Part shown: positions 8,586-29,000 of the stretch, one piece after another
How the letters are laid out: every line of letters starts with the position of its first letter
Numbering within the stretch: the stretch's first letter is position 1
Source: a virus
IMG/VR virus record: IMGVR_UViG_3300025890_000047
Coordinates: 1 to 43,612 of that record
DNA length: 43,612 nt
Direction: 5' to 3' (one strand)
Made by a program: the position numbers and the translations under genes
The notes under the pieces: generated by a model
The model's input: the letters and a program-made list of their open reading frames with translations, nothing else
What the model was told of the DNA's origin: nothing
The model's database searches: none

Positions 8586-9224
8586 ATGGCTACTGTCGCA
8601 ACACCAAGAACATACTCAAACATCACAGGTAAGACACCTGAGACTGATGAACCAACTCATCTTGATAAGGATGGAGTATCAAAAGAAGCTGGTGCACAAG
8701 ACTTACGCCAAGATATAGATGCGAACAGTATTGCTCAAACTAATACAACTTGGAGGGAGTATGAGGAGAAGAAAGAGCAACGCAATCGTTACTCTGCTAA
8801 CAATCCTCATCTCCAAACACCTTACTCATCACTTGAAACAATAACTATGCAAGCACTAAGACGATACGGGGACATGCACCCTGGAACAGTTGATGGTGAA
8901 GTTATGATGATGTTTGTTGAGTTTGCCAACTTAGTATTGGAAGACTTGAGAGGTCATCCTTATTGGGACAACCCAGAGATAGATTACTACTACCACCCAT
9001 CAGACATCAGGAAAGTACCTGATAACATAATGGTTGCTGGTATGCTTTATCATTATTCCGTTCAGCAACAGTCTAACAAGATTGAAGCCTATGGCCCTAT
9101 GTACTTTAAGATGATGAATAGAATTTTGTACTACAGGAAGTATGGCTCTGGTTCTATAGAGATGTCCCCTTGGGACAGAACTGTAAAGCCTACTGGGACA
9201 CAGTCTTATGACGGGAGTAGATAA
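8586..9224 (+). CDS. Head-tail adaptor (P22 gp4-like role)
   Basis: A 212-residue helical protein with ribosome site AAAGGA. After a polar N-terminal arm of about 80 residues, a helical core appears (MQALRRYGDMHPGTVDGEV, MMMFVEFANLVLEDLRGHPY) and then VPDNIMVAGMLYHYSVQQQS and YFKMMNRILYYRKYG. This size, helical layout and position between capsid and tail hub match connector/adaptor proteins that extend the portal (P22 gp4 type). The stop TAA overlaps the next ATG by one base. Function is inferred from context and pattern; I have not matched a specific family. Confidence 0.65.
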   Translation: MATVATPRTYSNITGKTPETDEPTHLDKDGVSKEAGAQDLRQDIDANSIAQTNTTWREYEEKKEQRNRYSANNPHLQTPYSSLETITMQALRRYGDMHPGTVDGEVMMMFVEFANLVLEDLRGHPYWDNPEIDYYYHPSDIRKVPDNIMVAGMLYHYSVQQQSNKIEAYGPMYFKMMNRILYYRKYGSGSIEMSPWDRTVKPTGTQSYDGSR

Positions 9225-10714
9225 TGTCTACGACTTACGCCCCTTCGGGTGTTAAATACAAAACCTACCCTTACGAAGACTTCCAAGGAATTGATAGTTC
9301 TCGTGATAAGGGAGCTTTGGACACTGGGCAGAAACAGCACATGATCGACATCAGTAATGGCTATGCCGACTGGCGTGGTGCAATGGTGCGTGACCCAGGT
9401 GCTACACAAAGAACTGAAGGTGACAAACTAATTACTCATGTGAACTTCTTTGGTCGTGATCTTGCAATATGGTCTCAAGTAGATGGTGGTGGAATGACAC
9501 TGCAATCTGAAAGATTACACACGGCAGCAGAAGTTTATCCACAAAAAGCAGTCGTCACTTCGACTGTGTATAATGATAAGGTTGTATTCGCTTCACGAGA
9601 TTTCAATATGTACCAGTATGATGGGTTCGTATGGAAACAAATAGAAGCCTTTTCTGATCCTCGCCCTGGCTTTGCTGTGTCAATTCAAAGACGACTTGCT
9701 ATAGCTGGTATGCCAGGAAAGAGAACTGTAATTGATTTTAGTAGAGTGGATGACGAGACTACGTTTACGGATGATGAAGACCCAGCAGCAGCACAGGTTA
9801 CTAAAGCGTCTGACATTGATGTGGGAAACATTATCGGAACTGCTGATGAGATTATGGGTCTGGGGGTATTTGAGAACTCTCGACTTGCTGTATTTACTAA
9901 CGACCAAACGCTAGTTTACAATCTACATCCTGACTACACACAATGGTCTATTGACGATAAAGCCAACATTAAAGTTGGAACAATTAGTCATAACACAATC
10001 ACACAAGCTGGTTCAGACTTATTGTTTTGTTCTAGGGATGGCATACATTCTCTGCGTAGAAGTGAAACGAATGGTGTGACAATCTATACTATTCCAATGT
10101 CTAATAAGATTGACCTGACTTATCGTGCTTTACTAAAACAAATTGAGAACAAAGAAGATATATCAGCTTTCTACGACCAAGATGAAGGTCAGTATCATGT
10201 CTTCTTTCCTTTATCAGAACAGCTTACAAAAAGACTTACACTTACACTTAACCCTATTCAGGGTGGTGAAAGTAAGTGGAGCACTGGCGACTTCCTTAAC
10301 GCCAGATGTGGAACACAACTAGGTGGTGTTACTCTTATGGGAACTCCTGGTGGTGTTTGGGAAAGACGAAAGATCGAAGACGAATTAGATTTTAGTCCTG
10401 AGATGGTAGTGATAACGCCAATCCTATGGCAAGGAGCTATCAACGATATTAAGGAGAGTTACTCTTTTATACTACAAGCAACAGGAAAAGGAGAGCTTCA
10501 AGTCGAGGCTTTTGATGAGCGAGGCAGATACTTGTCAGCCATTCAGTTCACCATCACAGAAGGTGGTGTGGACGACAACTTCCCTGATGTTCCGTTAAGT
10601 AGACAGTATGAAAGAAAATTTGAACATAGATACCGAGGAGTTCAGTTTCGCTTTACAACAAAGGGTAAAGGGTTGCTCAAAATTATCGGTTTTGCAGTAA
10701 ATGTGAGGACTTAA
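9224..10714 (+). CDS. Tail hub / DNA stabilisation protein (P22 gp10-like)
   Basis: A 496-residue protein likely forming the hexameric hub that plugs the portal-adaptor assembly and holds fibres. The sequence alternates short beta blades with features typical of gp10-type proteins: FQGIDSSRDKGALDTGQ and YADWRGAMVRDPGATQRTEG at the start, then repeated blade strands (VVTSTVYNDKVVFASRDFNMY, RRLAIAGMPGKRTVIDFS, SRLAVFTNDQTLVYNLH, GSDLLFCSRDGIHSLRRS) and a beta-sandwich C-terminus (GKGELQVEAFDERGRYLSAI). Gene order adaptor then hub matches P22-type tails. The ribosome site GGGAG lies inside the previous gene. Confidence 0.8.
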   Translation: MSTTYAPSGVKYKTYPYEDFQGIDSSRDKGALDTGQKQHMIDISNGYADWRGAMVRDPGATQRTEGDKLITHVNFFGRDLAIWSQVDGGGMTLQSERLHTAAEVYPQKAVVTSTVYNDKVVFASRDFNMYQYDGFVWKQIEAFSDPRPGFAVSIQRRLAIAGMPGKRTVIDFSRVDDETTFTDDEDPAAAQVTKASDIDVGNIIGTADEIMGLGVFENSRLAVFTNDQTLVYNLHPDYTQWSIDDKANIKVGTISHNTITQAGSDLLFCSRDGIHSLRRSETNGVTIYTIPMSNKIDLTYRALLKQIENKEDISAFYDQDEGQYHVFFPLSEQLTKRLTLTLNPIQGGESKWSTGDFLNARCGTQLGGVTLMGTPGGVWERRKIEDELDFSPEMVVITPILWQGAINDIKESYSFILQATGKGELQVEAFDERGRYLSAIQFTITEGGVDDNFPDVPLSRQYERKFEHRYRGVQFRFTTKGKGLLKIIGFAVNVRT

Positions 10715-12556: not shown

Positions 12557-13873
12557 ATGAACGATGATATTGGAATGATTTTAACTCAAGCAATAAAAGC
12601 GTTTAACGAAGACGGCTCTCCACCAAAGCAAAGAGAGTACACTACTAGATCAGGCGTTAAACGATCAGACAACTCTGCGTTCTCTAATGCACTAGACGAC
12701 TACGGCATACTGGCAAACCTACAAAGGTTTATTGCGAATATGCAAGACAAGCCTCATAGCGATGGAGTGCATGGTTTAGTGCCAGGTATTTCTCATCCAG
12801 GTGTAACTCCCAACGCTGCTTTTCTTGGTATAGATTTGGATCGTGACAGAGCCAAGAAAAACCAGATGGAAATTGACGCAGCTAATGAAGAGTTCAAACA
12901 AAAAAGAATTGAGGAGTTATACAACAGACTAGAAAAAACTCCGACTAAAGTTCCAAGCAAGGGAGACATTGAACACACCAATGCTATGGAAGGTAAAGAT
13001 ACAAGTATTACCTATATGCAACCTGGTGAAAAAGTCATGCCTGTTGCCGTTCAGAAACAATTTCCTGAACTTGCTATTGCTGTCGAAGAGGCCATAGGAT
13101 CAATGGGTAAAAACCCACAGCAATTTGTAGTTGGTTCAGACAAGGGTAATTATAACACCAAGACTGGTGTTCAACAATTTGATTGGATGGACGATCTATA
13201 TAAAACAGTGGGTGATTATGGAAAAACAGCAGCCGACTATGTAGCTAATAACCCGTATGCCAAAGCAGCAGCGACTGGTGCACTGGTTGCTGGAGGGCAG
13301 TACTTAGGTGGAGCTTCAGGTCAAACATCTTTGGCATCTGGATTGGGTGCTGGTCTCGGTAGTTATGGTGGTCAGTATTTAGATCAAGCTCTGACAAGCA
13401 AAGACTTCGGAAGCCTCCCTAAGACGGGCACAATTAATTCAAAAGACCTTTCAAGTAGTTTAGGAAACTTGTACGACACAACAAGTAAGTCAGAATTTTA
13501 TGGTGCTTCTCTAGGTGCTGGTCTTGGTGGCATGATGGGATATAAGCCAAATGCTGATGATGTACCGAACCCGTCAGCAAACATAGACACAAGCAATATG
13601 AGCCTAGCAAATGTTCCTATGTCTACTGCACCAACTGTTGGTTTCTTAGAGGGGAATGACAATCCTAATTACTTAGCAAGACCTTCTGCTGAACTGCCTA
13701 TAGCTCCTATGTTCCGTATGCCTAGTGGTGTTTCTTATAAACAAAAAGTAAAAGATAAAGACACTGGTGCTTTTAAATACAGTGACATTGATGAAGACGA
13801 TCAAGGAGGTTTTATGAGAAACCTATCTAGCAGTGCAAGACGTTCAGGATTTGGTAACTCAATCTTAGTATGA
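12557..13873 (+). CDS. Gly-rich virion protein 1 with shared C-terminal motif
   Basis: A 438-residue protein with a strong ribosome site (GGAGG). Residues 100-130 are a charged helix, and residues about 150-180 carry ITYMQPGEKVMPVAVQKQFP, a segment I associate with phage minor virion proteins. Residues 235-270 form an Ala/Gly-rich possible membrane-inserting segment (AAATGALVAGGQYLGGASG). The C-terminus is Ser/Arg-rich and ends RRSGFGNSILV, a motif echoed in the two next structural proteins. It overlaps the acetyltransferase gene by ATGA. A minor or ejected virion protein is inferred from neighbours; no enzyme motif is seen. Confidence 0.65.
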   Translation: MNDDIGMILTQAIKAFNEDGSPPKQREYTTRSGVKRSDNSAFSNALDDYGILANLQRFIANMQDKPHSDGVHGLVPGISHPGVTPNAAFLGIDLDRDRAKKNQMEIDAANEEFKQKRIEELYNRLEKTPTKVPSKGDIEHTNAMEGKDTSITYMQPGEKVMPVAVQKQFPELAIAVEEAIGSMGKNPQQFVVGSDKGNYNTKTGVQQFDWMDDLYKTVGDYGKTAADYVANNPYAKAAATGALVAGGQYLGGASGQTSLASGLGAGLGSYGGQYLDQALTSKDFGSLPKTGTINSKDLSSSLGNLYDTTSKSEFYGASLGAGLGGMMGYKPNADDVPNPSANIDTSNMSLANVPMSTAPTVGFLEGNDNPNYLARPSAELPIAPMFRMPSGVSYKQKVKDKDTGAFKYSDIDEDDQGGFMRNLSSSARRSGFGNSILV

Positions 13874-14316
13874 GGATTAGACCAGCTACCGAAAAAGACA
13901 TTGAAGAATGTGTTGGTCTAGCTCTTGGAATGATACTGGAGAGTTGGTGGCAAGACGAACCATTCAGTTCTGAAAAGATGAGAGACTATGCTTATAAATA
14001 TCTCTTAGATGAAAACAAGTTGTTCCTAGTTGCTGAAGAGGAGGGGACTGTTTATGGGTTCCTTTCTGCAAAAGTTACTTACACTTTTTTTGGTCACTCA
14101 GTACATGGAGAAGAAGAGTTGTTATATGTAGTGCCAGAGAAAAGAACTGGAACGACTGCATTAAAGTTTATGAGAGAGTATGAAAAATGGGCAAGATCGT
14201 TTGACGCAAAACATATCTACTTCGCCCCGACTGCCACACAAAGAAGACAATGGGATGCCCTGTCCAAACGACTTGGATACACATACCTTGGCCCAGCTTA
14301 CGGAAAGAAGTTGTAA
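13870..14316 (+). CDS. GNAT-family N-acetyltransferase
   Basis: A 148-residue protein with the compact GNAT layout: MRIRPATEKDIEECVGLALG start, LFLVAEEEGTVYGFLSAKVT as beta strands 2-4, then EELLYVVPEKRTGTTALKFM, which corresponds to motif A (strand 4 and the acetyl-CoA pyrophosphate loop, here with RTGTTA in place of RGxGIG/A), and a C-terminal FDAKHIYFAPTATQ and KRLGYTYLGPAYGKKL. GNAT enzymes transfer acetyl from acetyl-CoA to amines. Phage GNATs inside structural operons are common but their substrates are mostly unknown. The start overlaps the preceding stop (ATGA), indicating coupling with the virion protein. Confidence 0.82.
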   Translation: MRIRPATEKDIEECVGLALGMILESWWQDEPFSSEKMRDYAYKYLLDENKLFLVAEEEGTVYGFLSAKVTYTFFGHSVHGEEELLYVVPEKRTGTTALKFMREYEKWARSFDAKHIYFAPTATQRRQWDALSKRLGYTYLGPAYGKKL

Positions 14317-14369
14317 GGACGACACTTCCAATTAATTGTGCGACTGTAAAAAAAAGGAAGGGTAATTAA

Positions 14370-16130
14370 ATGGGTAGTTCTCCTGGAGAAGATAGCGAAC
14401 CTGGTGTAAGCCCAGGTCAAGTCACAGCAATGACAGGTTCTCCTGTGGGCACAACTTCTATGGGCAGAAGCGTGTCAGGTATGACACCAGATGAAGCATC
14501 CAAAGCAATGGATGTTGACCAAGCTCTTTCTAACGCTGGGTATAGTTCTGGCTATAAGGGAGTGGAAGACGGAAAGGGTAACAGCGTTACAGATGGTAAC
14601 GGCAACCCAGTTTCAAGTGGAGCCTATGGCAATACCAAGGGACAGGCTGAAGCTGACTACGACTATCGGATGGCAGAAGAAAAGGCTAAAGCCGACTTTG
14701 AAGGTAGGATGTATAATGGGCCACCAGTAGACCCTAATCTAGTCAATATGGCAAAGGGCAACCTTAATACGACTAGATCATTCATAACTAATACACCACC
14801 TGAGTATATGAGCAACATAGGTATTAATCCTTATGAAAACCCTAATTTGGGGCCACTAGGTTCGAGCTATACTTCCTTTAACAATAACCCAGATTACACA
14901 AGGGTAGATGTACCAGATAATTTTATTGGGCCAACTAGGGCTGGTGTCATTAGTGCAGCAGAGTTGCTTGGCTCTAACCTTGCTACAGGCACATCTTATG
15001 CAAAAGGAATGGAGGGTTACAAAGATGGAACCTTTGCCGATCCTTATGGAAGTTTCTTAGGCACAACAGTTGATGAAACTAATAGAGACCTAGCTGCCAC
15101 GCCAGGTGGCCTCAACAACACAGGGTATCTTGACCAATTCCAGGCTGGTTACAACTCCACACAAGACCGAGGATTTTTTGACGGAGTATTTGGTATTAGC
15201 AGTCCAGGAGAGCGAGAGCAATTCGCTGGTAAGGGTGATTTAAATATAGACAAGGCTGGCAACGTAGGATTTCAAACTGGTGCTCAACAGTTTGGCGACT
15301 TTGCTGGTGGGATGATCGCTGGTAAATTGCTTGGCCCACTCGGTATGGGCTTAGACTTTAACACTCAAACAAATTATGGAACCAATGTTCCAGGGTACAG
15401 CAACACCCAATCAACGACTAGCTTTGGTATCCCCGATGCAATAGGTGGATTTCTTGGAAGTAAAGCTGCCCCAGCATTAGGAAGCTATGTAGGTCAGCAA
15501 GTTTATGGAAAGACTGGAAATGTAATGAACGCAGCAAACGCACACTTAGCAACTATGGCAGCAACTCAACCCTTGGTTTCTGGTGGAGTTTCTCAAGGAT
15601 TACAAGCTATGGGTGTCCCAGCTAATAGTGTTATTGGAGCATTGTCTGGATCATCAATAAGTCAAGATGGTACTGGTATTCAAGTTGGCGAAGATGCTTA
15701 TAACGACTTTGAAGAAAGACTTGGTGGTGGCAGTGGCACTACAGATACTGGAGACAATAACCAAGGTACTTCATTAATGAACAATCAAGTGCCAGCACTT
15801 CAAGATCAACTTCAAATATTAGATACGTCTGGAACATATAGTGATGACGCTCAAGACAGTGCTCAAACTATGTTCCAACAAGATCAATTAAAACAATACT
15901 TCGCTAATGGTTCCCCTTCTTCCTTAACAGGTGACGCAGTTATGACTGCTGGTAACAACCCATTGTTTAACGCAAACCCAGCAGTGACTTACCGACAATC
16001 AGGGGGGAAGAATAGAAACTACGGAAATGCTATAAGTAATGCAGTAACGCCTTTACAGGCAAACAACTCGCTTAGTAATGCCTCCAGACGTAGACAGTTT
16101 GGTGATGCAATGCTGGGATTATTTGGATAG
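14370..16130 (+). CDS. Gly/Asn-rich virion protein 2 with shared C-terminal motif
   Basis: A 586-residue protein with ribosome site AAGGAAGG. It is dominated by Gly, Ser, Asn, Thr and Tyr with low complexity at the N-terminus (residues 1-110). Residues about 300-330 and 360-430 contain Ala/Gly-rich possible membrane segments (FAGGMIAGKLLGPLGMGLDF). The end reads ASRRRQFGDAMLGLFG, which aligns with the tails of the genes before and after it. This looks like a minor virion protein possibly ejected with DNA; it is not a recognised family. Confidence 0.6.
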   Translation: MGSSPGEDSEPGVSPGQVTAMTGSPVGTTSMGRSVSGMTPDEASKAMDVDQALSNAGYSSGYKGVEDGKGNSVTDGNGNPVSSGAYGNTKGQAEADYDYRMAEEKAKADFEGRMYNGPPVDPNLVNMAKGNLNTTRSFITNTPPEYMSNIGINPYENPNLGPLGSSYTSFNNNPDYTRVDVPDNFIGPTRAGVISAAELLGSNLATGTSYAKGMEGYKDGTFADPYGSFLGTTVDETNRDLAATPGGLNNTGYLDQFQAGYNSTQDRGFFDGVFGISSPGEREQFAGKGDLNIDKAGNVGFQTGAQQFGDFAGGMIAGKLLGPLGMGLDFNTQTNYGTNVPGYSNTQSTTSFGIPDAIGGFLGSKAAPALGSYVGQQVYGKTGNVMNAANAHLATMAATQPLVSGGVSQGLQAMGVPANSVIGALSGSSISQDGTGIQVGEDAYNDFEERLGGGSGTTDTGDNNQGTSLMNNQVPALQDQLQILDTSGTYSDDAQDSAQTMFQQDQLKQYFANGSPSSLTGDAVMTAGNNPLFNANPAVTYRQSGGKNRNYGNAISNAVTPLQANNSLSNASRRRQFGDAMLGLFG

Positions 16131-16139
16131 GAGATTAAA

Positions 16140-16955
16140 ATGGGTGGATTTGGTGGCAACAGTTCAGGTGGTAGTGGTGGACAAGACATTGTTCAAAGAA
16201 CAAAATCTGCAAGCAATAAGCGTAACTCGCAAAACCAAGGTAATGATGATGGTGGCAACGACAACAATAACCAGTCATCTTCTCAAACTTATGTTGCACC
16301 TAAACCAGTTACACCTGTCACGACTGGTGTAGCTAACGTAGCACCAACAGAAACTGGTGGTGGAGCAAGTTTTGGTACAAACTTTTTTAGCAATCAACCT
16401 ACGGACATAAATCAAAAACAATTTGTGGCTGGTGTTGGAGAAGGAGCGACTAAGGACGACTTGGTTTCTGGCATCCTTGGTGGAGAAGGTGGCATTTATG
16501 AAGGTGCTAGTCCGTTTGCATCTAAAGGCGTTGATAGAACAGTGATGACAAATATGGGTCTTGATGCTGGAGTAGTTCCAACTGATGGAAGTGTGGAAGC
16601 ACAGGCATACGCTCCGAATATTTCAGGTGGAGACCCTGGTGTTGGTCTTCAAGGATTTGGTGCAAAGATGATGGGTGGCGAAGGTCAGGTCATTGGTGCA
16701 GATGGAGTTCCCACAGAGTTTGAAGCATTGCCAACTGATGTTGCTAACTCAGACTTAGTTGACCCAAATGCTATGATGCCTATACCTGGTCAAGCAGTTA
16801 TTGCAGACCAAGCATACAACATGCCGACTGGAATGGGTGCTCAAGGATTTTTCCCTAACTCTACTAAGGCTTATCAGTACCAGACAAATCCTTTTGCTGG
16901 ACGCATGATGAACAAAAGAACTGGGTTTGGCAGAAGTCTATTTGCCAATACATAA
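16140..16955 (+). CDS. Gly-rich virion protein 3 with shared C-terminal motif
   Basis: A 271-residue protein with strong ribosome site (GGAGA). The first 70 residues are Gly/Ser/Asn/Gln low complexity, followed by a Gly-rich domain (GGGASFGTNFFSNQPTDINQ, VSGILGGEGGIYEGAS). The end, FAGRMMNKRTGFGRSLFANT, carries the same basic plus FG motif as the two preceding virion proteins. Its position in the same operon supports a structural role. No homology recognised. Confidence 0.6.
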   Translation: MGGFGGNSSGGSGGQDIVQRTKSASNKRNSQNQGNDDGGNDNNNQSSSQTYVAPKPVTPVTTGVANVAPTETGGGASFGTNFFSNQPTDINQKQFVAGVGEGATKDDLVSGILGGEGGIYEGASPFASKGVDRTVMTNMGLDAGVVPTDGSVEAQAYAPNISGGDPGVGLQGFGAKMMGGEGQVIGADGVPTEFEALPTDVANSDLVDPNAMMPIPGQAVIADQAYNMPTGMGAQGFFPNSTKAYQYQTNPFAGRMMNKRTGFGRSLFANT

Positions 16956-16965
16956 GGAGTAGCAC

Positions 16966-17853
16966 ATGGCTGGTTACGGAGACACATTCTCAAAAATGGT
17001 CGGGGGTTATTATAAGCCCGACAGCAAAGAGGCTGCGTCTGCTTCTCTGTTTGGTAACGCTTACGACTTCTATGATGCGTATACTAGCAAACAAGATGCA
17101 GAAGCACAGAGTAAAATGGACGCTCAGATGCGAGCACAAGCACAGGCCAACCAAGCTGCGATTGCTCAAGCTCAAGCTGAAAATGAAGCTCTAATTAAAA
17201 AGAGGGTGATGAACAGGATTGCTGAATTTGATGGAGCATTGAAAGAAACTTACTCTCGTATGGGTGCTAGAATGAATGTAGACCCAGAAGATATACAAGC
17301 AAACTACGACTTGCTTCGTAAGCAAGGTTATGATGATCTTAATGCAATCACTGATCGTGTATCTTCAACTGGATTTTCTAATGCCATACGAAGGGGCATG
17401 GATGGTTCAGGTCTTTATAAAGATGAGCAAGCTGCTCTAGCAACTAAGCTACAGAAGAACTACCAAAAGGTAGATCAAGCTGCTTTTGATGCTGCAATTA
17501 TGAGAACCAACTCTTTTGCTAATGCAGTGAACTCAGGAAGAGACAAAGCACTTAACGAAGTATCTACTGTATATGGCAAACCTATTGATGCAGAAAAAGG
17601 TTTGATAACAAACAACGCTAACAGCTATATGAACACTGCCTTTAACAATGCAAACAAGGCTTCGACAGCAAGTGCAACAGCTATGAATAATGCCGACACA
17701 TACTTGGGTAACGTAGTCGGAACTATTGATGAAAAAGCTCCAGGTGCTGTAAGTTATCTTCGTGGCAATTCAACAACAGTTGCTGATCCTAATGTTACAA
17801 AGATAAAAGAATTAGAAAAGCAAATAGCAATGATGAAGGGAGCTACTACATAA
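16966..17853 (+). CDS. Internal virion protein, helical (T7 gp14-like role)
   Basis: A 295-residue protein with ribosome site AAGGAG. Residues 40-85 form an Ala/Gln/Met-rich coiled coil (DAQMRAQAQANQAAIAQAQ), and the remaining sequence is helical with a second short coil at the C-terminus (IKELEKQIAMMKG). Size, composition and position just before two larger internal proteins resemble the smallest of the three T7-type ejection proteins, which line the trans-envelope channel. The stop overlaps the next ATG by one base. The assignment is by analogy and not by a motif. Confidence 0.6.
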   Translation: MAGYGDTFSKMVGGYYKPDSKEAASASLFGNAYDFYDAYTSKQDAEAQSKMDAQMRAQAQANQAAIAQAQAENEALIKKRVMNRIAEFDGALKETYSRMGARMNVDPEDIQANYDLLRKQGYDDLNAITDRVSSTGFSNAIRRGMDGSGLYKDEQAALATKLQKNYQKVDQAAFDAAIMRTNSFANAVNSGRDKALNEVSTVYGKPIDAEKGLITNNANSYMNTAFNNANKASTASATAMNNADTYLGNVVGTIDEKAPGAVSYLRGNSTTVADPNVTKIKELEKQIAMMKGATT

Positions 17854-19820
17854 TGGCTTTCTCAGCAAACTTCTTTGACGCATACAACACCGAAAAGACT
17901 AACATCCGTAAGAGGCGTAAAGAAAACGCTGAGATGTTTGAGGCATATAAAGATGCCAAAGTCGCTGATGGTGAAGAAGTATCTGTAGAAGAACTATCTA
18001 ATATGAGAAGCAATCTAGCTGGTGGCGACTTCTATTTTGGTCAGGCATTGCCAGCCGAAAAGATGATGGGTGCGTTAGCTGACCGAACAAATGAAAGAGT
18101 TACTAATACTATTTCTGCTGAGTTTGCACAACAAGCAGAGCAGACACAAAAGATTTCTAAGGTGGTCGATAACATAGTTCCTAGTCTTTTAAACATCGCT
18201 GACATTGATGGTGCTGATGGTCAGGAAAAACTAAAGGCAAGGTTTACAGCGATCAACCCTAAAGACCCAGCATTTGGAAACCAGTTATATGAAAGCTGGA
18301 AAGATAGATTACCTAACATGATTGAAGTTGCCAAAGATAAAGAAGTAAATGACTTTATGGCAAAACACAGTGAAGCAAATTTATTTAGTGAAGTAGAGCA
18401 TCTTACTGTTGGTCTTCCAGCTTGGAAGGTTAATGCTATTAGGCAAGGGTACTTATCAAAAGAAAAGGTTTTTGATAACAAGAACTTTACTGATGCTTTG
18501 AAGAACGTAAATCTAAACACAAAGCCAGCAGAGTTTACTCGTATGGGCACAACAGAGTTAGATGATTTTGCTAAACTGTATCTTTTAAGAAATGGTGTTC
18601 TTGAAAAAGATATTACTCCAGAGAGAATAGCTGCTACTAAAGCTGCACTTCAGCCTATATATAATGCTGAGACAAGAGCATATTCAGAAAAACAAGAAAC
18701 AAAGTTTGAAGAGGATGTTGAGAAAGACATTGCCTTGTTGGATATGATTTCAGACCCAACGCTGGATAACCAACGAATGATGTTAGATACAGTGAACAGG
18801 TACAGAAGAGATAATGAGTTACCCGAATATACAAGTATAAATGATGCGAATTTTCAAAAGCTCCTAAAGTCTATGGGAACTCCAGCACTTTCTGCTGCCA
18901 AAGCAAAATATACAAAAATGAAAACGACTGCTGATGCAACAGCAAAAACAATATATGATGCAGCAGTAACCACTTCGCAGAGTAAGTTTGATAGTATCTT
19001 AAAAGGTATGTCAGATAGCGATAACAAAACTGCAACAACAGGTATAGCTGAACAGTTACACAATAGTTATCACATACCACCTTCAATGGTTAGTACAGTT
19101 TTAACAGATATTCTGACATTAGTGGAAGACGACTTTCCAAGTAACCCAACTGAACAAGCTGCTATAATAGGTTTGATGGTTAGGAGACATGGATTATCAA
19201 CAAGCACTGAAGCTATACTTGATTATCAGGCTGCTCAAAGAAAAAGAGATGCAATAGGTATCAAGCCAAACACAACAGTAACAGAATATTTTGACATGGA
19301 GATGAAGCCATTTCTTGTTTTCATACAAAAGCCTATGACACAGATAGCTCTTCTGCCTATAAACAAACCTGTCTTGACGAATAGTGCATACCCTAATGGA
19401 ATATCAGTTCCAGACATACAGAAAAAAGCTATTCAAACTGCTAATGATTTTTTTGATAATATGATTAAGCAAATTGATATGAATGAGTTTCTTTTAGATG
19501 GTGATGATGATGATGGTATTCTTACCATTACTAAAAAAATAGAAGACGCAAGAACTGCTGCCATCATGGAAATCAATAATGCCAAGCCTAATGCCAAGCC
19601 TACATACTTCAGTAAATCTGGCCCTAATTACATAACGAATAATCAACCACTACCTCAAGGTATGAAGGCTGGAAGATACCAATTACAGAATGGTCAGTAT
19701 GTTTATGTGGGGCCATTGACCCAACAACAACAGAATACAAAAATTGTTGGTGGCGTTAGAATGGTTAAGAATGGTAGAGGTCAATGGGTTAGAAGTAACA
19801 ATCAAAGTAACATACCATAA
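17853..19820 (+). CDS. Internal virion protein, large helical (T7 gp15-like role)
   Basis: A 655-residue, strongly helical, soluble protein beginning MAFSANFFDAYNTEKTNIRK. It is charged with no membrane segment, contains long helices (residues about 130-400) and ends in a small beta-like tail (GMKAGRYQLQNGQYVYVGPL) followed by a Gln/Asn/Arg-rich end. It lies between the coiled-coil protein and the giant protein, matching the middle member of podoviral internal core sets. Translation is coupled to its neighbours on both sides by TAATG overlaps. No specific family recognised. Confidence 0.6.
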   Translation: MAFSANFFDAYNTEKTNIRKRRKENAEMFEAYKDAKVADGEEVSVEELSNMRSNLAGGDFYFGQALPAEKMMGALADRTNERVTNTISAEFAQQAEQTQKISKVVDNIVPSLLNIADIDGADGQEKLKARFTAINPKDPAFGNQLYESWKDRLPNMIEVAKDKEVNDFMAKHSEANLFSEVEHLTVGLPAWKVNAIRQGYLSKEKVFDNKNFTDALKNVNLNTKPAEFTRMGTTELDDFAKLYLLRNGVLEKDITPERIAATKAALQPIYNAETRAYSEKQETKFEEDVEKDIALLDMISDPTLDNQRMMLDTVNRYRRDNELPEYTSINDANFQKLLKSMGTPALSAAKAKYTKMKTTADATAKTIYDAAVTTSQSKFDSILKGMSDSDNKTATTGIAEQLHNSYHIPPSMVSTVLTDILTLVEDDFPSNPTEQAAIIGLMVRRHGLSTSTEAILDYQAAQRKRDAIGIKPNTTVTEYFDMEMKPFLVFIQKPMTQIALLPINKPVLTNSAYPNGISVPDIQKKAIQTANDFFDNMIKQIDMNEFLLDGDDDDGILTITKKIEDARTAAIMEINNAKPNAKPTYFSKSGPNYITNNQPLPQGMKAGRYQLQNGQYVYVGPLTQQQQNTKIVGGVRMVKNGRGQWVRSNNQSNIP

Positions 19821-19963
19821 TGGAACATTCTAAAAACAAAGAAGACAATAGGGCTAAGTACCCCGAAGTCGCCAAGTTTGTAGACGAGGTGCGAAAGCAT
19901 TTCCCTGGTGCTAGAGTTACAAGTATCAAGCCAATCAAGGACAAGCCACCCGAAAAAAAGTAG
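19820..19963 (+). CDS. 47-residue basic protein
   Basis: A short gene whose ATG overlaps the TAA of the preceding internal virion gene (TAATG). It encodes a highly charged 47-residue protein with a middle helix (YPEVAKFVDEVRKHFPGARV) and a Lys/Pro-rich end. The stop is immediately followed by the GGGACGACTG word and the leader of the giant gene. The compact helix-strand layout suggests a folded protein rather than chance. Function unknown. Confidence 0.55.
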   Translation: MEHSKNKEDNRAKYPEVAKFVDEVRKHFPGARVTSIKPIKDKPPEKK

Positions 19964-20030
19964 GGACGACTGCTAATATTAAGCCATGTATTCTTAGTGC
20001 AAATTTAACGCATAGTAATGGAGTACGAGC

Positions 20031-23000
20031 GTGGCATTTAAAGACAGTCAAGAAGGTGGGGATTGGTCTTGGTTAGATCAACCTTCAGGTGAGGGTTCAG
20101 CTTCACTTGGTTATGCAGCAAACTTAGATAAACAAAAGGCTCTCGAAGTTTATAAGAACGGGGAGTTTATCCAAGACATCATGGATTACTATGGTGAGCG
20201 AGATGGAATAACCTTTAGTTCAAATGAAGAAGCCTACGACAAATTCTGGACTGATCGTACATGGCGTAACCTCAATACTTTTGCTATTGGTGCTGATTAC
20301 TTAGATGGTAAATCTAACACTGATGCACAGAACATACGACTTGCCCGACTTCAATCAGTGCACACAGCCCTACCAGATTTCTGGCAAGAGGGTGGTAATA
20401 GAGATGCTGGTCATTTAGCAGATATTGCTGGATCAGTAATCTTAGACCCAATTAACGCAATAGGTTTTGGTGCTGGTGGTGCAGCAGCAAAAACAGCAGC
20501 CTTCACAGCTATACGAAGTGGGCTGAGTAAAGAAGCAGCAAAGTCGGCTGGTCGAAACGCAGCAATGAAAAAAGGTTTTGTTGCTGAAGGTGCAGCTAAC
20601 GCACTCGTTGAAGGTGTGGCTAATGTTGGTATTCAAAACAGAGATATAGAAATAGGGCTAAGAGGAGAATATAATCCTTTTGAAACTGCTACTGCTTCTG
20701 CTATGGGCTTTGCCTTGGGTGGTGCTCTCGGTGTTCCTATGGGTCTTGCTGGTGCTTATATGCCAGCCTTTACCAAAGCTGGGAGATCAGGGTCTCACGA
20801 CTGGAAGACATCAAACAAATTATCTCAAGGTATGCGTGAAGGAAAAAAAGCTAGGTTCCAAGACAAACTAGACGCTGCAAGTAACGAAGTTGCAAACGAG
20901 ATTGTAGACGAAGTCGATGATATGACAGCTTCTCAAATCTTGAGAGGCAATGTTATTGCTAGAGCAAAGCAAGATTATGACAAAGCCAGAGCTGAAACAG
21001 CAGAACAAAATGGTGGACTAGATTTAGAAAAGGGAGATGCAAATAATCTTCCTGATGGAGAGCTTTCAACTTGGTCTAATTTAGAAGCTGCTTCAGCACG
21101 AGTGGATCATTTAGCCAAAGCCTCTCACGAAAGAAAAGCGTCAGCACAACAAATAGCTCCTGAAGACCCAGCTAAAGCTAATGACTTAATGAATGAAAGT
21201 CAGAAACTAGCTGAAGCATCTAATGCTATTCAAGACGCATTTAATAGAATGAATAAGAAGTACGAAGACGGGCTAGTGCCTACTGAAAAAGAAATTGAAA
21301 CTCTTTTGTCAGAAGATCAAAGAGCACAGCAATTATTATTTGATTTTAATACAGGCAGTGACCCTAATGTTAAAAACCCAGTTGATCCAAAAGATGCCGT
21401 TATTCCTGGTGCACGACCAGACACTCAACTTCCAGATGGTTCAGCCGTACAAGATGTTGCACCCAAGACAGACCCTGTAGCTGTTCAAGCAGAGGCAAGG
21501 CAAGTTGAAATCAATAAGGCTCAGACAGATGTAGACAATACAAAAGCGTCCTTTGAAGCTGGTGCGACAAAAGTAAATAATGCCAGTCGTAAATTAACAA
21601 GACTTACAGGAGCCTATGAGCGATCATTACAGTCTGGTGTTCCAGAAAATGTTACGTCAGCAGAACAAGCACTAAGGGTAGCAGAAGAAGAATTAGATGT
21701 TGCGACTGGTGAATTGGAAGTATTAACTAACAATGCTAAGATTGCTGAAGATGCTCTTGTTGCAAAAAAATCTGAAGAGTTAAAGGCTGCACCAGATCAA
21801 GACACTTCTCCAGAAGTCGTGGCTGAAACAGAAGCAACAGCTACTGGCAACAAAGTCGTTGAAGAGCCACAGTCGGCAGAAGAAATTGTTGATGAGTTAG
21901 TTAACAGCACTGACCCAGATGAGAAGATTAGCTTCACCAGCCTCAAGTCTACATTAAATTATATTGTTGATGAGCTTGGCTTTAGCCGTGCAGAAGTTAT
22001 TAACTCTTTACCGAAAGCTAAAAAAGGTAGGCCAACTAACGCAGACAAAGAGGCGTTTAGGTCTGCTGCCATTCAGTTTACAGAACGAGCAATGGTACAA
22101 CAACAAGCTCAAAATGCTATTGAACAGTTAACTTCACCAGAACAATTCTTTGATTTTAATGTTGTTTCTGGAATTTTAGATAGCACCTTTACTGATCCTC
22201 GTCTTCGTGCCATTGCTCAAGACGAATATATAACAGCTATAGCTGACCAATCCCCATCTTATATTGCTAACCTGATTAGCGAAAATCCAAACTTAAAGAT
22301 GTCTGAAATTTTAATTCAGGCAGAAGATTACTTCGGAAAAGAAGTTGCTGAGATAATGGCAAACTCTATGAAGTCAGATGTGGTTCAAAAGTCCTCTATA
22401 GATATGGATAAGTTAATTGGCAAGAAAGCTGCGATTGGAAACATGACCAGTAACATCAAAGCCATGAACGACACTATCTTTAGAGTTAGTGAACTTAGGA
22501 AAGCTATCCTTGGCAAATTAACAGACGAAGAATTTAAGCGTGGTTATGGTCAAGTAACTGAGACAAAAAAAATACGGGGTCAAGAGAACCTTACTCAAGC
22601 ACAAGTAAACCAGATTGTTAACAACCCAAACTTCAAGGGTCAGGTAGACACATACAGTAGTTTCTCTTTCCAAGCTGGCTCTGGCTCCACACCACAAAGA
22701 GCCGTTGCTAATGATGCAGAGAAGCAAGTCAAAGAAATAGCTAAGTCAAATGGTATTAACCCAGACCTAAACTCTGGCGAAATCATTGAACAGTTAGAGA
22801 TGCGTGTTCGTAAATTAGAGAACGAGCTTGACGCTGGCGTTAGAACACCTATCGATATGACTAAGCCTCAAGGCTCAACTCTTACTAAAGCTGAGTTTGC
22901 ACAGTTAAGCGAAAAGCAACAAATCATGGAAGTGTTTGTGTCTCGACTACCAAAAGGAAAGGTAGAACAGATCAACGCAATGAGAGAACAGCTTATCAAA

Positions 23001-26000
23001 GCTAACATTGCAGATGGTACTATTACTCCTGAGATGGCAGTAAGCACAGCAGATTTAGCTGTTGAAAGAACGATCGAAAACATGATGAAGCGAGATGAAT
23101 TGCTTGGTCAAGTTGATGGTAAGGGAAAGTCTTTCTCCTCTAATCAGTCAACAAGGGGTATGCAAGATGCCTCAGTTGCAGATCAGTACGCAGACAATGC
23201 CTCACACATGGGTAAAACATATGAAGGTGGCTTTGGTAAAATAAGTATTGGTCGTAATAGAACTATGGTTGGTGGTTCTGCATCTAAGAGAGTACAGAAG
23301 ATACTTCGATCTGCTAACAGGGTTGGTTTAAATGATGGTGCAGTCTTTAGAAAGCACGGCATTGTTAAAGGTGAGAGTGCTACAGTTTCATTTCAAGAAG
23401 CTGCACTGCAAGAATTAGAACAGTCGTTTATCGACAACGCTACTAACCGAGTTGTCAGAAGTGACGAAAAGATTAAAGACAACAAGGTTGAGTTTGACAA
23501 TGCAAATAATGCAATCAAAGAAGCGAATAAACTTAACGCTCAAATTAAAAAGTTAGATAAAGAGATTGATGAAAACCCTGGTGCAGAAAATGTACCTCAA
23601 CTTGAAAAAGATGTTCAACTTTTAAATCAGCAAGTAACTAAGATATATGAAGATGCTATTGCTAAAGCTCCTGATTATGCAGCAGAAAAAGGAAAGCTCA
23701 ATCAATTAGAGCCAACTCTCCGTGGCACAGTATTGGAAATAAGAAAAGAGTTTTCACAGGAAACTGCTAAAGAAGCTGCTGGTCGAAAAGCAGAAAACAG
23801 AAAGTCGTCACCAGTCGGTAAGGTACAGGTGATACTTAATGAGTTGAAAAACCACCAGACCAACATAGTAAAAGCTAAGAAGCGTGGTCGTTCTAAACCA
23901 ATCATGGATGCTTTGTATTCAGAGAAGAAAGAAATATATAAGCGATACAATGCTGAGTTCAAAAAACTTAGCAAGTCAGATCAGAAAAGAATTAAAGAGG
24001 CGAACAAGAAAGTCGCAACACAAACTGCTGCTGAAATTGAAATCAGGCAGCGAGCTAAAGAACAAGAAGTCGCAGACATTAAGATAGATGAAGTTCCAGA
24101 GTGGTATGGTCTTGATGACATAACACCTGAAGAACGAGTTGGTATTATTGAAGATAGTCAAAAACTAGCAGATCAAAACAATAAGTCTCAGGCAGCAGAA
24201 GTAGAGATTAAACAAAAAGCACAAGCTGTTTTATCTAACGACTTGCCTAAAGACGAGATGGTAAGAATAATACTAGAGTTAAAGTCTGAGCTTGATGCAA
24301 TCAAGAATGGTGTACCACCAACTAAAGCCCCAACTGGCACACAGTTCAAACCCTACATCAGAAAAATAGATGGGTATGAAGTGGACGTACATAATCATTT
24401 TAAGTTTGAAGGAAAGGGAGGCGAAGGCTTCCTAGTATTTGATGGTGTCCGTGTAGCTCAAATGGGTAAGATTGGAGACAAAGTAAGTCTTACACTTATT
24501 ACAGACAAGGCTTCAAGTAACGACATACGATTGTTCAGCAACTCGAATATGATGAAAGATAATATCCCTGAGATATTTAAAAACAGAATTGCTGAGTATG
24601 CTGAAAGAACTGGAGCTATCATTAAGACTGAGGGTGAAGAAGGCTTGCAGTTCAAACAAGAGTGGAACAAGTCAGAAACATATAAAGGTCGTGCTGAAGC
24701 AGATGCAGAAGACCTTGTAATTGATGATCCGACTGTAGAGACATCTCCTATATCTGATCCTAAAAATGTTATGACACATACAGCCAACGACTATCAGGTT
24801 CCTCCTGGTCGAAAGATGGCTGTGCAAATTATTGATGATGTTGAAGGTTCAGCACTTCATGGAGTTGTCCGTATCCCTAACCCTAACCAAACTATAGGTC
24901 AGGTATTAAAGACCAGTTCTAATAAGAAGTTTATTATTGGTCATGTAAAAATAGATCGTAAGATAGCATCTGGTCGTAGAAAAAAGGGTATGGCTAATGT
25001 TGTTACCCCAGCCTCTCTTGCTGAAGCTATGGAAGACTTTACTCCATTAACTCCATCAGAGGGTAAGGTCACTTATCAAGAAGGACAATTACTTTTAGGC
25101 AACAAAACAGTCGCAGATAAAAGCCCACGAAAAAGAGCTATGCGACCAGTTAAGGTTGAGGACTTAGGCAATATTAAGGTTAAGAAAAGTTTTCTACCTA
25201 ATGCTGTAGCAGACAAAATTGATAACGCTGCTGACTTACAAGCCTATATTAATAACTTAGAAAACATTTCATGGAGCCGACTAGGTACACTTGCAGATGT
25301 CAAAAGGTTTACGAATACTTTAAAGCAAGCCTACGCAGCAATGGGCAACGCAGTTCCTAATGGCGTGAAAAGAATTGAGTTAGATCAACGACAGTCTTTC
25401 AAAACTCTTCGTAATGTTTTTAAAGGAAGAGCAGATGATGAGATTGAAGCATCGCTAGATTTCCTAAGACGAATTAACCCTGATGGCTCCAATGGAGCTA
25501 TGCCAAGGTTTGAAGGCGTAGATGGAATTGAGGGAGATGCTAACGCAGTCGGTGCTTATAATACAAACGATGGAAAGATATTATTAACTGACAAGCTATT
25601 TGAAAAGGGTGGTGATGAACAGTTACGACCTATACCAGCGACCATAACTGTTGTGCATGAGGTAGGCCACTGGGCTTATGACAACATGTTAACTCCATCT
25701 GAAAAGATGATGTTCTGGCACTCTATGTCAAAATATTATGATGCAGATGGTAATTTAGATATGGAGCTTTTACAGAAAAGACTGCCAGGAATAAGTGGCA
25801 ATGAGATTGAAAGTCCAGCAGAATTATTTGCTCATCAGTTTACATCTTATGCTTTAAATATTGGAGCAGTTCCAGACGCTGCATTGTTTATTAAAGTTGC
25901 ACGACACGCTGTAACATTGATTGAGCGTTTTGTGTTTGGCAAACATCCTATGGGAATACAAAGTGCTGACCCAGATTTAGAAGCATTGTTTGAAAGAATT

Positions 26001-29000
26001 ATTCCTAGAAACCAGTTTGATGCAGATGGATCAGTTGTTCATGGAGCCAGTCGTTTTGCTGGGCTTGAAGAGAATGGCTATACTGTATCTCCGACTGCTG
26101 GGTTTATAGGAAGACAGCTTAATGAATTAGATAATATGCGTAGTAAGCTAACATCTGTTATGAACGTATCAATCGTTAATGATGTTGCTGATACACAGTT
26201 GTTATTAAAAACCCTAGAGGAGACAGGGAAAAATATCTATAGCAAGTTTGGTGGTGGGCAAGGCAAGACACATCATTACACTAACAAAGCTACTGGAGAA
26301 GGTGGAAATCAAAGAGTACGACTGCTTGATGGTCAAGTCACAAACAAGCAAGAAGTCGTAACAGGAGATGGCTCTACTAAGCTAGTTAACATATATAATT
26401 ATCCAGCAGCAAGACGAGCCAGAAACAGATTGCTTAATGCTCAATCTGCCATTCGTGATTACATGAAAGAAGTTACGACTTACGAAGCATCTACAAAAAC
26501 ATCTACTGATGATGCAGAGCTACGACAGTTAATTGCTTCACAACAAATGGACATGGAAGATGCTATGCCTGACAACTCGTTCATTGAAATGGATGAAATG
26601 GAGTTGGCAAACGTAGGTTCTTCTTGGGAGGCTCAAGCCGAAGTTCTCTCTAGGCAGATGACTATGACTACTGGAAACCTTAACTTCATGCACATCCGAA
26701 GACTGGCTGGCGACATGCTTAATGCTATTGACGATGGACAGCGTGAGCTTGTTAAAGCCTTCAATCGTAATATGCCAAGAGATGATATGTCTCGTCAGGT
26801 ATCAATCGACTTCAAAGGTGATGCAAGTATTACTCAGCCAAGCATCAAGGGCAGAAAGAAAAAGATGGGCGATGCTATACAGCTACGTCAAGAGAAGCAG
26901 TTGGTTAATGATATTAAAGAATTGGAAACTGAAAGTGTATTGTTAACTCAAGTTGGTAATGATGCGTTGTTAAGTGCTATCCGTAATGGCGATCCTAAAA
27001 TATTTATGGATAGCTTGGCTGAAACAAACCCTGTGATTAAGAAGTCTGTTAAGCAAATGACGGACGCAGAGCTTAATGCAGAAAAGAAAAGAACAAATTA
27101 TGGAGACAAGCGTAAAGTTGACTTGGCGTTAGAAGTCTCTGCTCGTAAGAACGCAAGTAAAAATGTAAACCAAGAAGAAGCTGAAATCGTATCAGACCCA
27201 GCCGTACAAAAAGCTATTAATAATGAGGTAGCTCAAACTGCTGGCACTGATAGCATAGCTGGTATCCCAGCCAAGACACCACAGCCTATTAAAGATTTCT
27301 TGAGGGGTCTTACTAATGGCGACAAAGTGCAAGAAGCTGTAGGTCAGAACCTGATTTATAGATTACTTAATGTTGGAGGTCACACTATTGACGACTTCGA
27401 TACTGGCTTTGTTCCAGAAAGTATTATGGAAGGCATCTTTACACAGAATACAGTTCCAAAAAGAGCGACTGGAGAACCAGCTTCTTTGAAGGATCAGGCA
27501 TATAACGGCTTGAGAAAAGAATTAAGAGCTATAACTAAGTCCCTTTCTGGTAAGGGAGATATGACACCTAGAGATATGGAAGTAATGTCAGACTTGGCGT
27601 TTCATTTATCTATGTCTGATGCGACTAAAGCTAAATTTGTAAGCAACATGAGAACCCTAGAATTACCTTCTGGTTTGGATAGTTTGCTTTGGTTACGCCA
27701 AGCTATGGTTTATAAGGCTGAAGGTAATTTAGCAGAGTTACAAAGACATGTTCGTGTCTTTGAAGTCGAAGATGGTTTCTATAAAATCCCAGCAAATCCA
27801 AAAGCTCAAGAGCTAATGAGGATTGTGAACAGACACTTTGAAACTATTGCTTACTCACTCAATGGTAACTTTGACCCTGACAAGCTACCACTACAGTTGA
27901 TGAGCTATGGAGACATGTTCGCATCTCAACGTATAGACACAGGCATATCTTCAGCAGTTGATGGTGCAGATAAACGCTTTGTTAATAAGCATGTAGTTCA
28001 AGATTACGCAGTTGAAGCAGTAGACAAATTGCATCAAGACAAAGAAATTATTGCTCGGTCTTTTCTTGGGGTAAGTCGAGAAGCTGATTTGAAAAATCAT
28101 ACATATATCCACTCTGGTCAAGATGGGATGAATACTCAAATTCATAAGACTGAGGTTGGTGAGTATGGCCCAGGTTATTACATGCAGACTTTGTCTGAGT
28201 TTAACTCAAAGTCGTCTGCTGATTTACATAACCGAGGGGCAGATGATTTAATTAAATCAAGTAGCGTATCTGACAATCTTAAACAAAAGTCTTTAATGGC
28301 AAACAGAAAACTGACCGATGTTAATATTGCTATTGATGCACTAAGCATGGAAAAGAAGATGGCTACTCCAGCTAGAAAGAAAGAGATTGTTGGTACTCTA
28401 CAGAACCTAGTCAAGAGAGCTAATTCTTTACAAACAATTATAAACAGAACAGCTACTGTAAACTTAAACAGTGATGTGGTTCCTGTATTTTCAAATCCAA
28501 GGAACATGTTTAATTTTAGTCGAACTGCAATATACGACTTTGTAAATCCTTCTGATAATAACATTGCACATATCATTGCTGATATGGGTGAAAAAGGATT
28601 GATCTCCGTAAAAGGCGTTCAAAAGTTACAAGAAGTTTTAGATGGTTCGTTCACTGGCTCTGACTTCTTCCGTGCTCTAACAGATGAAAACGTAGGTGTT
28701 ATGCACAAGCATGGCGATAGCGTAAATTCATTTGAAGCAAAAACAAGACTTAATGAATACCTTGAAGATGCTGGTTATGAAGGTTCAGTTCACTCAAATA
28801 AAAATAGTGAGACTGTAATAGTTAACTACAATAGCGAAACAATGAAGCCTATTAACGGAGACTTTACCGAAGCAGAACTTAATAACACCAATCAAGGGAA
28901 ATCTGGTGGAGATATAAAACCAACTGGCGACTTGTTAATAAAACAATTAGAAGAAGGCGAAGCCTTTGACCCAACCGACTTTGTTGGATTTAGTGCACAG

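What the first reader, a model, noticed from the sequence alone, without database searches (positions are those of the whole stretch)
12557..16955. Three neighbouring virion proteins share a basic plus FG C-terminal motif
The ends read RRSGFGNSILV, RRRQFGDAMLGLFG and KRTGFGRSLFANT: two basic residues, two variable, FG, one variable, S/A, then a hydrophobic pair. The rest of the proteins differ. The giant protein also ends with FATNKGFGN. This looks like a shared docking or sorting tail for assembly in the virion, perhaps the target of a common partner.
Basis: seen in the sequence. Interest (0 to 1): 0.7.

Follow-up and report, generated by a model that had tools for sequence, protein, structure and literature searches.

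The report
Shared docking tail on phage proteins
In a widespread group of marine short-tailed phages, three different neighbouring proteins, probably ones injected into the host, all end in the same short peptide tail, which evolution has preserved while the rest of the proteins diverged; it is probably a shared plug or address tag that holds them in place in the virus particle.

Summary
Proteins A (12557-13873), B (14370-16130) and C (16140-16955) end in R-R/K-x-G/Q-F-G-x-x-hydrophobic. A score matrix trained without this window and its nearest relative ranks these three tails 1-3 of all 13,012 15-mers in the window's proteins. A matrix trained on any two families recognises the third (p = 2e-22, 1e-14, 2e-17). 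The motif Arg/Phe/Gly residues are among the few invariant residues of each family, and all Arg and Gly codons are used, so selection acts on protein, not DNA. Related phages keep the tail; a few clades degrade it. The cultured relative's group (Roseobacter phage CRP-810) has one unrelated protein at this locus whose end carries the sister element F-[SA]-x-N-[ILV]. The giant protein's FATNKGFGN end does not belong.

Best reading: A, B and C are ejection-type internal proteins, and the tail is a disordered linear docking peptide for one common site at the portal-tail vertex. Precedent: the T7 gp7.3 C-terminal loop, with two lysines at the DNA end, wedged between nozzle subunits. The partner is inferred, not shown; an encapsidation signal read by scaffold or coat is the main rival. 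I found no earlier description. New variant of a known kind.

The parts
12557..13873 (+). protein A, 438 aa: GE-x-V-x-P domain, Gly/Ala-rich helices, C-terminal module
   Evidence: ORF; 38 distinct homologues; AF2 model mean pLDDT 62
13727..13870 (+). A C-terminal module, residues 391-438: beta-hairpin GVSYKQKVKDKDTGAFKY, then GGFMRNLS, then tail
   Evidence: homologous to B C-terminus (hhalign P 1.4e-5); hairpin 394-411 predicted, 415-438 pLDDT < 50
13838..13870 (+). A tail RRSGFGNSILV, residues 428-438
   Evidence: rank 1 of 13,012 15-mers; R428 and G433 invariant, G431 nearly so, in 20 homologues
13870..14316 (+). GNAT-family acetyltransferase between A and B
   Evidence: PF00583 E 6e-9; conserved at this place in nearly all relatives
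14370..16130 (+). protein B, 586 aa, Gly/Ser/Asn-rich
   Evidence: ORF; 21 distinct homologues plus strongly diverged ones at the same position
16086..16127 (+). B tail RRRQFGDAMLGLFG, residues 573-586
   Evidence: rank 3 of 13,012 15-mers; R573 invariant in 14 homologues
16140..16955 (+). protein C, 271 aa, Gly-rich
   Evidence: ORF; 26 distinct homologues
16632..16676 (+). internal motif-like copy in C, DPGVGLQGFGAKMMG (F173 and G174 invariant)
   Evidence: rank 5 of 13,012 15-mers; invariant columns
16914..16952 (+). C tail KRTGFGRSLFANT, residues 259-271
   Evidence: rank 2 of 13,012 15-mers; R260, G262, G264 invariant in 14 homologues
9224..10714 (+). tail nozzle/hub beta-propeller, candidate common partner
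   Evidence: AF2 pLDDT 81, matches P22 gp10 (Z 25.7), SU10 nozzle (25.4), T7 gp12 (20.2) over >400 residues; 45-81% identity across the group
8586..9224 (+). adaptor, candidate common partner
   Evidence: 54% identity over 128 aa to CRP-810 gp43, next to the nozzle gene in both phages
16966..31628 (+). downstream putative ejection block: D (16966-17853), E (17853-19820), giant protein (20031-31628)
   Evidence: giant 35% identical to CRP-810 gp34 and 33% to gp36, the latter annotated internal virion protein D; gene order

Best explanation
A, B and C are internal, ejection-type proteins. Their common C-terminus is a flexible linear docking peptide, R-x-G-[F/W]-G-x-x-hydrophobic, often preceded by a sister element [F/I]-[S/A/G]-x-[N/S/A]-[I/L/V]. 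The aromatic and aliphatic residues would bind one conserved groove repeated around a ring of the portal-adaptor-nozzle channel, and the Arg pair would face the DNA end. This would park different proteins at the exit vertex, with their acidic bodies on the head side, until ejection. Shown: a shared, conserved, protein-level tail, confined to the C-termini of these three proteins and predicted disordered in A. Inferred: virion location, ejection, binding to the portal-tail ring (nozzle/adaptor most likely, by the T7 gp7.3 precedent), and DNA contact by the Arg pair.
For: Tail recognised across families: trained on two, it finds the third, p 2e-22 / 1e-14 / 2e-17, and 28/38, 12/21, 19/26 tails beat all 514 other ORF tails. 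Motif residues are among the 7-13 invariant residues of each family, enriched at the ends (P 0.017, 1e-4, 0.009). All six Arg and all four Gly codons are used at invariant positions: protein-level selection. Tail predicted disordered. An element matrix trained on A and C picks out the C-terminus of the unrelated protein at the same locus in CRP-810-type phages: most score above every genuine other ORF (9.5 bits), one lies below (7.7) and L125 lacks it. Locus lies between tail genes and the giant/internal-protein genes; composition is like P22 gp7/gp20 and SU10 gp21/gp22. The nozzle fold is confirmed and well conserved. Precedents: T7 gp7.3 C-terminal loop 84-98 anchored on two adjacent gp12 nozzles, K84/K85 at the DNA end, six copies (PMC11784390); crAss001 cargo peptides bound to tail rings and muzzle (PMC10172136). 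The T7 gp7.3 and gp6.7 tails rank 2 and 3 of 49 T7 proteins for the motif.
Against: No direct evidence that A, B or C are in virions or bind anything. T7 tail scores are weak (7.1 and 6.1 bits against a median of 25 for A/B/C) and the comparison was made after noticing the similarity. Portal (68%), MCP (61%) and adaptor (54%) are as conserved between the window and CRP-810 as the nozzle (50%), so conservation does not single out the partner. Proteins of 271-586 aa cannot fit wholly in a short tail channel. SU10, which has the same capsid fold, lacks the tail. Some clades have degenerate tails.
Confidence: 0.45

Rival explanations
1. Encapsidation signal: the tail is read by scaffolding or coat protein during procapsid assembly to bring A, B and C into the head (like the T4 capsid targeting sequence or encapsulin cargo peptides, but C-terminal), and has no role at the vertex later.
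For: Same sequence facts. In P22 all three ejection proteins need scaffolding protein, not portal, to enter procapsids, and in T4 ten residues of IPIII suffice (PMC8402733). MCP and scaffold are conserved across the group.
Against: In P22 the N-terminal parts of gp7 and gp20 carry incorporation, each protein with its own site. The scaffold is less conserved (38%) than portal, MCP, adaptor and nozzle.
Confidence: 0.3
2. The tail acts after ejection: A, B and C dock on each other or on a fourth ejected protein to assemble the trans-envelope channel.
For: Tandem motif-like copies inside A, B and C would allow multivalent assembly. T7 gp6.7 works both in the core and in the extended channel (PMC11784390).
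Against: No sequence evidence for a complementary pocket within A, B or C; CRP-810-type phages keep a related element with only one carrier protein.
Confidence: 0.13
3. Common descent only: a C-terminal module was copied among the three genes by recombination and persists without a shared partner.
For: A and B are homologous over the last ~45 aa.
Against: The tail is the part that stays while bodies diverge to 22-40% identity; motif residues are invariant and synonymous codons are scrambled. The bodies of C and the CRP-810 carriers show no detectable homology to A or B.
Confidence: 0.07
4. External tail decoration: A, B and C are outside proteins attached to adaptor or fibre through the tail.
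For: Genes follow the tail fibre gene directly.
Against: No receptor-binding or fibre folds; low-complexity Gly/Ser/Asn-rich composition like ejection proteins; proteins lie before the internal-protein genes.
Confidence: 0.05

Closest known systems
T7 gp7.3 (PF11653) C-terminal loop, PDB 9jyz
   Same: C-terminal tail conserved while the rest varies; basic pair plus small and aliphatic residues up to the end (KKSLSVARSSGGGINI); anchored on the nozzle in the tail channel, lysines at the DNA end (PMC11784390)
   Different: 80-106 aa basic protein encoded upstream of the portal gene; no GFG core; motif score only 7.1 bits; no Pfam match of A/B/C
T7 gp6.7 (PF17570)
   Same: small core/ejected protein starting MCF and ending SSIRKSAFGGKK, close to SSRRRSGFGGK of protein A in L006
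   Different: its C-terminus is not resolved; tail varies among T7-likes; other gene order
Ejection proteins of P22 (gp7, gp20, gp16) and SU10 (gp20-24)
   Same: place between tail genes and the large internal protein; low-complexity Gly/Ala-rich composition
   Different: no shared C-terminal tail found in them; P22 gp7 and gp20 enter through their N-terminal parts
T4 capsid targeting sequence; encapsulin cargo peptides (own knowledge, T4 also PMC8402733)
   Same: a short shared peptide that sorts several different proteins into a shell
   Different: T4 signal is N-terminal; no sequence relation tested
crAss001 cargo protein gp45 segments on tail rings and muzzle
   Same: short cargo peptides docked inside the tail (PMC10172136)
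   Different: internal or N-terminal helical segments of one protein, not C-terminal tails of several

Membership tests
T7 gp7.3 family (PF11653) | profile match | tested here: not met
   A, B, C have no Pfam match at E 0.1, gp7.3 itself matches PF11653 at 3e-61
T7 gp7.3 family (PF11653) | small basic protein of 80-106 aa | tested here: not met
   A, B, C 438, 586, 271 aa, net charge -9, -25, -9; gp7.3 +10
T7 gp7.3 family (PF11653) | C-terminal loop with basic pair docked on nozzle | not testable with these tools
   needs a structure; tail resemblance weak, 7.1 bits
T7 gp6.7 family (PF17570) | profile match | tested here: not met
   no match for A, B or C
podovirus ejection (pilot) proteins | encoded in the block after tail genes, before or with gp14/15/16-like genes | tested here: met
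   gene order in window and relatives; giant related to CRP-810 gp34 and to gp36, annotated internal virion protein D
podovirus ejection (pilot) proteins | present in virion, lost on DNA release | not testable with these tools
   no proteomics for this group found
T4-type capsid targeting sequence | N-terminal signal | tested here: not met
   the conserved element is at the C-terminus in A, B and C
T4-type capsid targeting sequence | signal removed by a prohead protease | not tested
   no protease search was made
nozzle protein of P22 gp10 / T7 gp12 type (ORF 9224-10714) | beta-propeller nozzle fold | tested here: met
   Z 25.7 to P22 gp10 over 420 residues, Z 20.2 to T7 gp12 over 444

The most novel reading that the evidence does not exclude
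Short-tailed phages have a general, transferable C-terminal address tag (F-[G/S/A]-x-x-aliphatic, with Arg in this group) that lets unrelated ejection proteins share one receptor ring at the portal-tail vertex. T7 gp6.7/gp7.3 and CRP-810 gp39 would be other instances, and carriers would be swapped while the tag and receptor persist.
Probability: 0.25. Interest if true: 0.8.

Novelty: new variant of a known kind. Interest (0 to 1): 0.58.

Why it matters
How podovirus ejection proteins are chosen, packaged and held at the exit vertex is largely unknown; P22 ejection proteins are not even seen in maps. A 10-15 residue tail on three proteins of one phage gives a direct handle: it can be deleted, mutated or fused to a reporter. 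It would also give a way to spot ejection proteins in marine phages, whose sequences otherwise match nothing in the libraries searched, and possibly a tag for loading cargo into short-tailed phages.

Tried and rejected
Giant protein as fourth carrier: rejected. DNA-level element at gene ends: rejected, synonymous codons vary. Full paralogy of A, B and C: only the A-B C-terminal module is homologous; A-C and B-C align weakly and only at the ends. Family identity: no Pfam or PHROGs match for A, B, C of the window, none for C homologues, scattered weak hits for A homologues. Cultured relatives: B matches none, diverged A homologues match none, CRP-810 gp39 matches only itself. Strong tails in P22, SU10, LUZ24, HTVC010P, P-SSP7: none. 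T7 gene 7 as counterpart of the window GNAT: inconclusive. Finding the partner by conservation between the window and CRP-810: not discriminating. Literature searches for a shared C-terminal motif in podovirus ejection proteins found nothing on point. The 'capsid targeting' texts say P22 uses N-terminal parts, which lowers but does not exclude the encapsidation rival.

Full report
What is there. The window is a fragment of a marine podovirus with an SU10-type major capsid protein (PF17236). Gene order: portal (its C-terminal part), scaffold, MCP, adaptor, nozzle 9224-10714, tail fibre 10718-12547, A 12557-13873, GNAT 13870-14316, B 14370-16130, C 16140-16955, D, E, and a 3865-aa giant protein. 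The ends of A, B and C are as reported. AlphaFold and PDB comparison confirm the nozzle (P22 gp10 Z 25.7, SU10 25.4, T7 gp12 20.2).

Is it chance? No. In related loci the strict pattern occurs in 42 of 84 distinct A/B/C tails. It occurs in 3 of 439 other tails, and those 3 are diverged B-position proteins. A 15-position matrix trained without the window and L001 puts the three window tails first, second and third among 13,012 15-mers. Trained on two families, it recognises the third (p 2e-22, 1e-14, 2e-17; 28/38, 12/21 and 19/26 above every one of 514 other tails). In each family the motif's R, F or G are among only 7 to 13 invariant residues. Arg and Gly at these sites use all synonymous codons, so the constraint is on protein.

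How far it extends. Using the nozzle as bait, 80 relatives were collected from IMG/VR. The tail is kept through A and C bodies at 22-40% identity. It decays in some clades: A in L047, L056, L058 and neighbours; B in L041 and L078, and GLN instead of GFG in L020-L031; C in L020 and L024. The only cultured relative found, Roseobacter phage CRP-810 (PMC11288001), shares portal 68%, MCP 61%, adaptor 54% and nozzle 50%. A, B and C have no counterpart there; one protein (gp39) stands at the locus. The gp39 family ends in F-[SA]-x-N-[ILV] elements. A matrix for the sister element of A and C, trained without that group, scores most of these ends above all genuine other ORFs of those loci. One scores below the best of the others, L125 lacks the element, and the first four 'others' listed by the tool are the same family.

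Anatomy. A and B share a C-terminal module of about 45 aa, GVxY..xxDRxTGxxxY...RRxGFG. In A it is predicted as a beta-hairpin followed by a disordered tail. C shares only the last 20-25 residues, and has an internal QGFGxRAL copy with invariant F-G. Composition is Gly/Ala/Ser/Asn-rich with almost no Trp or Cys, like P22 gp7/gp20 and SU10 ejection proteins; the bodies are acidic while the tail is basic.

Mechanism. Inference: three different internal proteins use one docking peptide for one ring-shaped receptor at the portal-tail vertex. The closest solved case is T7 gp7.3: residues 84-98 (KKSLSVARSSGGGIN, checked in V01146) are anchored between adjacent gp12 nozzles, and K84/K85 touch the DNA end (PMC11784390). 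Across T7-like phages the gp7.3 C-terminus is what stays conserved. The T7 gp7.3 and gp6.7 tails rank second and third of 49 T7 proteins for the window motif, but at weak scores, and I looked because I remembered them. This supports 'works like', not membership; membership tests on profile, size and charge fail. The main rival is an encapsidation signal read by scaffold or coat, as scaffold is needed for P22 ejection proteins (PMC8402733). Available data cannot separate these, since all candidate partners are conserved.

The giant protein. Nine relatives end in aromatic/Gly-rich strings such as SSSFGGTFD or GFGGGGFGKGGF, mostly after a conserved RxPVxGG...F.E segment; none has RR-x-GFG-hydrophobic. 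CRP-810 gp34 ends NPWASSNSWSKSFDSKWK. This is a separate feature.

Novelty. I found no description of such a shared C-terminal tail in the papers searched, and A, B and C match no confident family. It is a new variant of a known kind (virion docking peptides).

Noticed in passing
window 2131-4773: 880-aa protein with RCC1-like repeats (PF25390 9e-36, PF00415 5e-19), a beta-propeller type usual in eukaryotes, in the structural block after the portal.
   Followed up: partly
window 13870-14316 and same place in relatives: A GNAT acetyltransferase, sometimes two in tandem (L012, L020, L028), sits beside the ejection-type genes. P22 gp14 (DUF2824), T7 gp13, LUZ24 gp54, HTVC010P and P-SSP7 have a ~150-aa protein in the same place; PHROGs groups T7 gp13 with the P-SSP7 and HTVC010P ones, the latter with a weak GNAT hit. 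Possibly one widespread assembly factor.
   Followed up: partly
L084-L092 and window 31490-31628: The giant protein ends in short aromatic/Gly repeats (FGG, WxS, DPFGG) after a conserved RxPVxGG segment; a second kind of repeated C-terminal tail.
   Followed up: partly
window 20031-31628 versus CRP-810 gp34-gp36: The single 3865-aa giant protein corresponds to three separate genes in CRP-810: fusion or fission of an ejection-type protein.
   Followed up: no
L064-L081, nozzle gene: One clade carries an insertion of about 140 aa in the otherwise rigid nozzle protein (match 1900-1940 bases instead of 1488).
   Followed up: no
L031 and L048, between fibre and A: An extra ORF of about 485 aa is inserted between the tail fibre and A genes.
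   Followed up: no
B and C N-termini, window 14370 and 16140: B and C start M[C/G]GG/S in most relatives; T7 gp6.7 starts MCF, gp7.3 MG, P-SSP7 gp23 MC, CRP-810 gp39 MCGG. A shared N-terminal signature of such proteins?
   Followed up: no
HTVC010P 2216-2437 (L150): 73-aa protein between terminase and portal with KRKGRRSTILT near its C-terminus, perhaps another basic/hydrophobic tail type.
   Followed up: no
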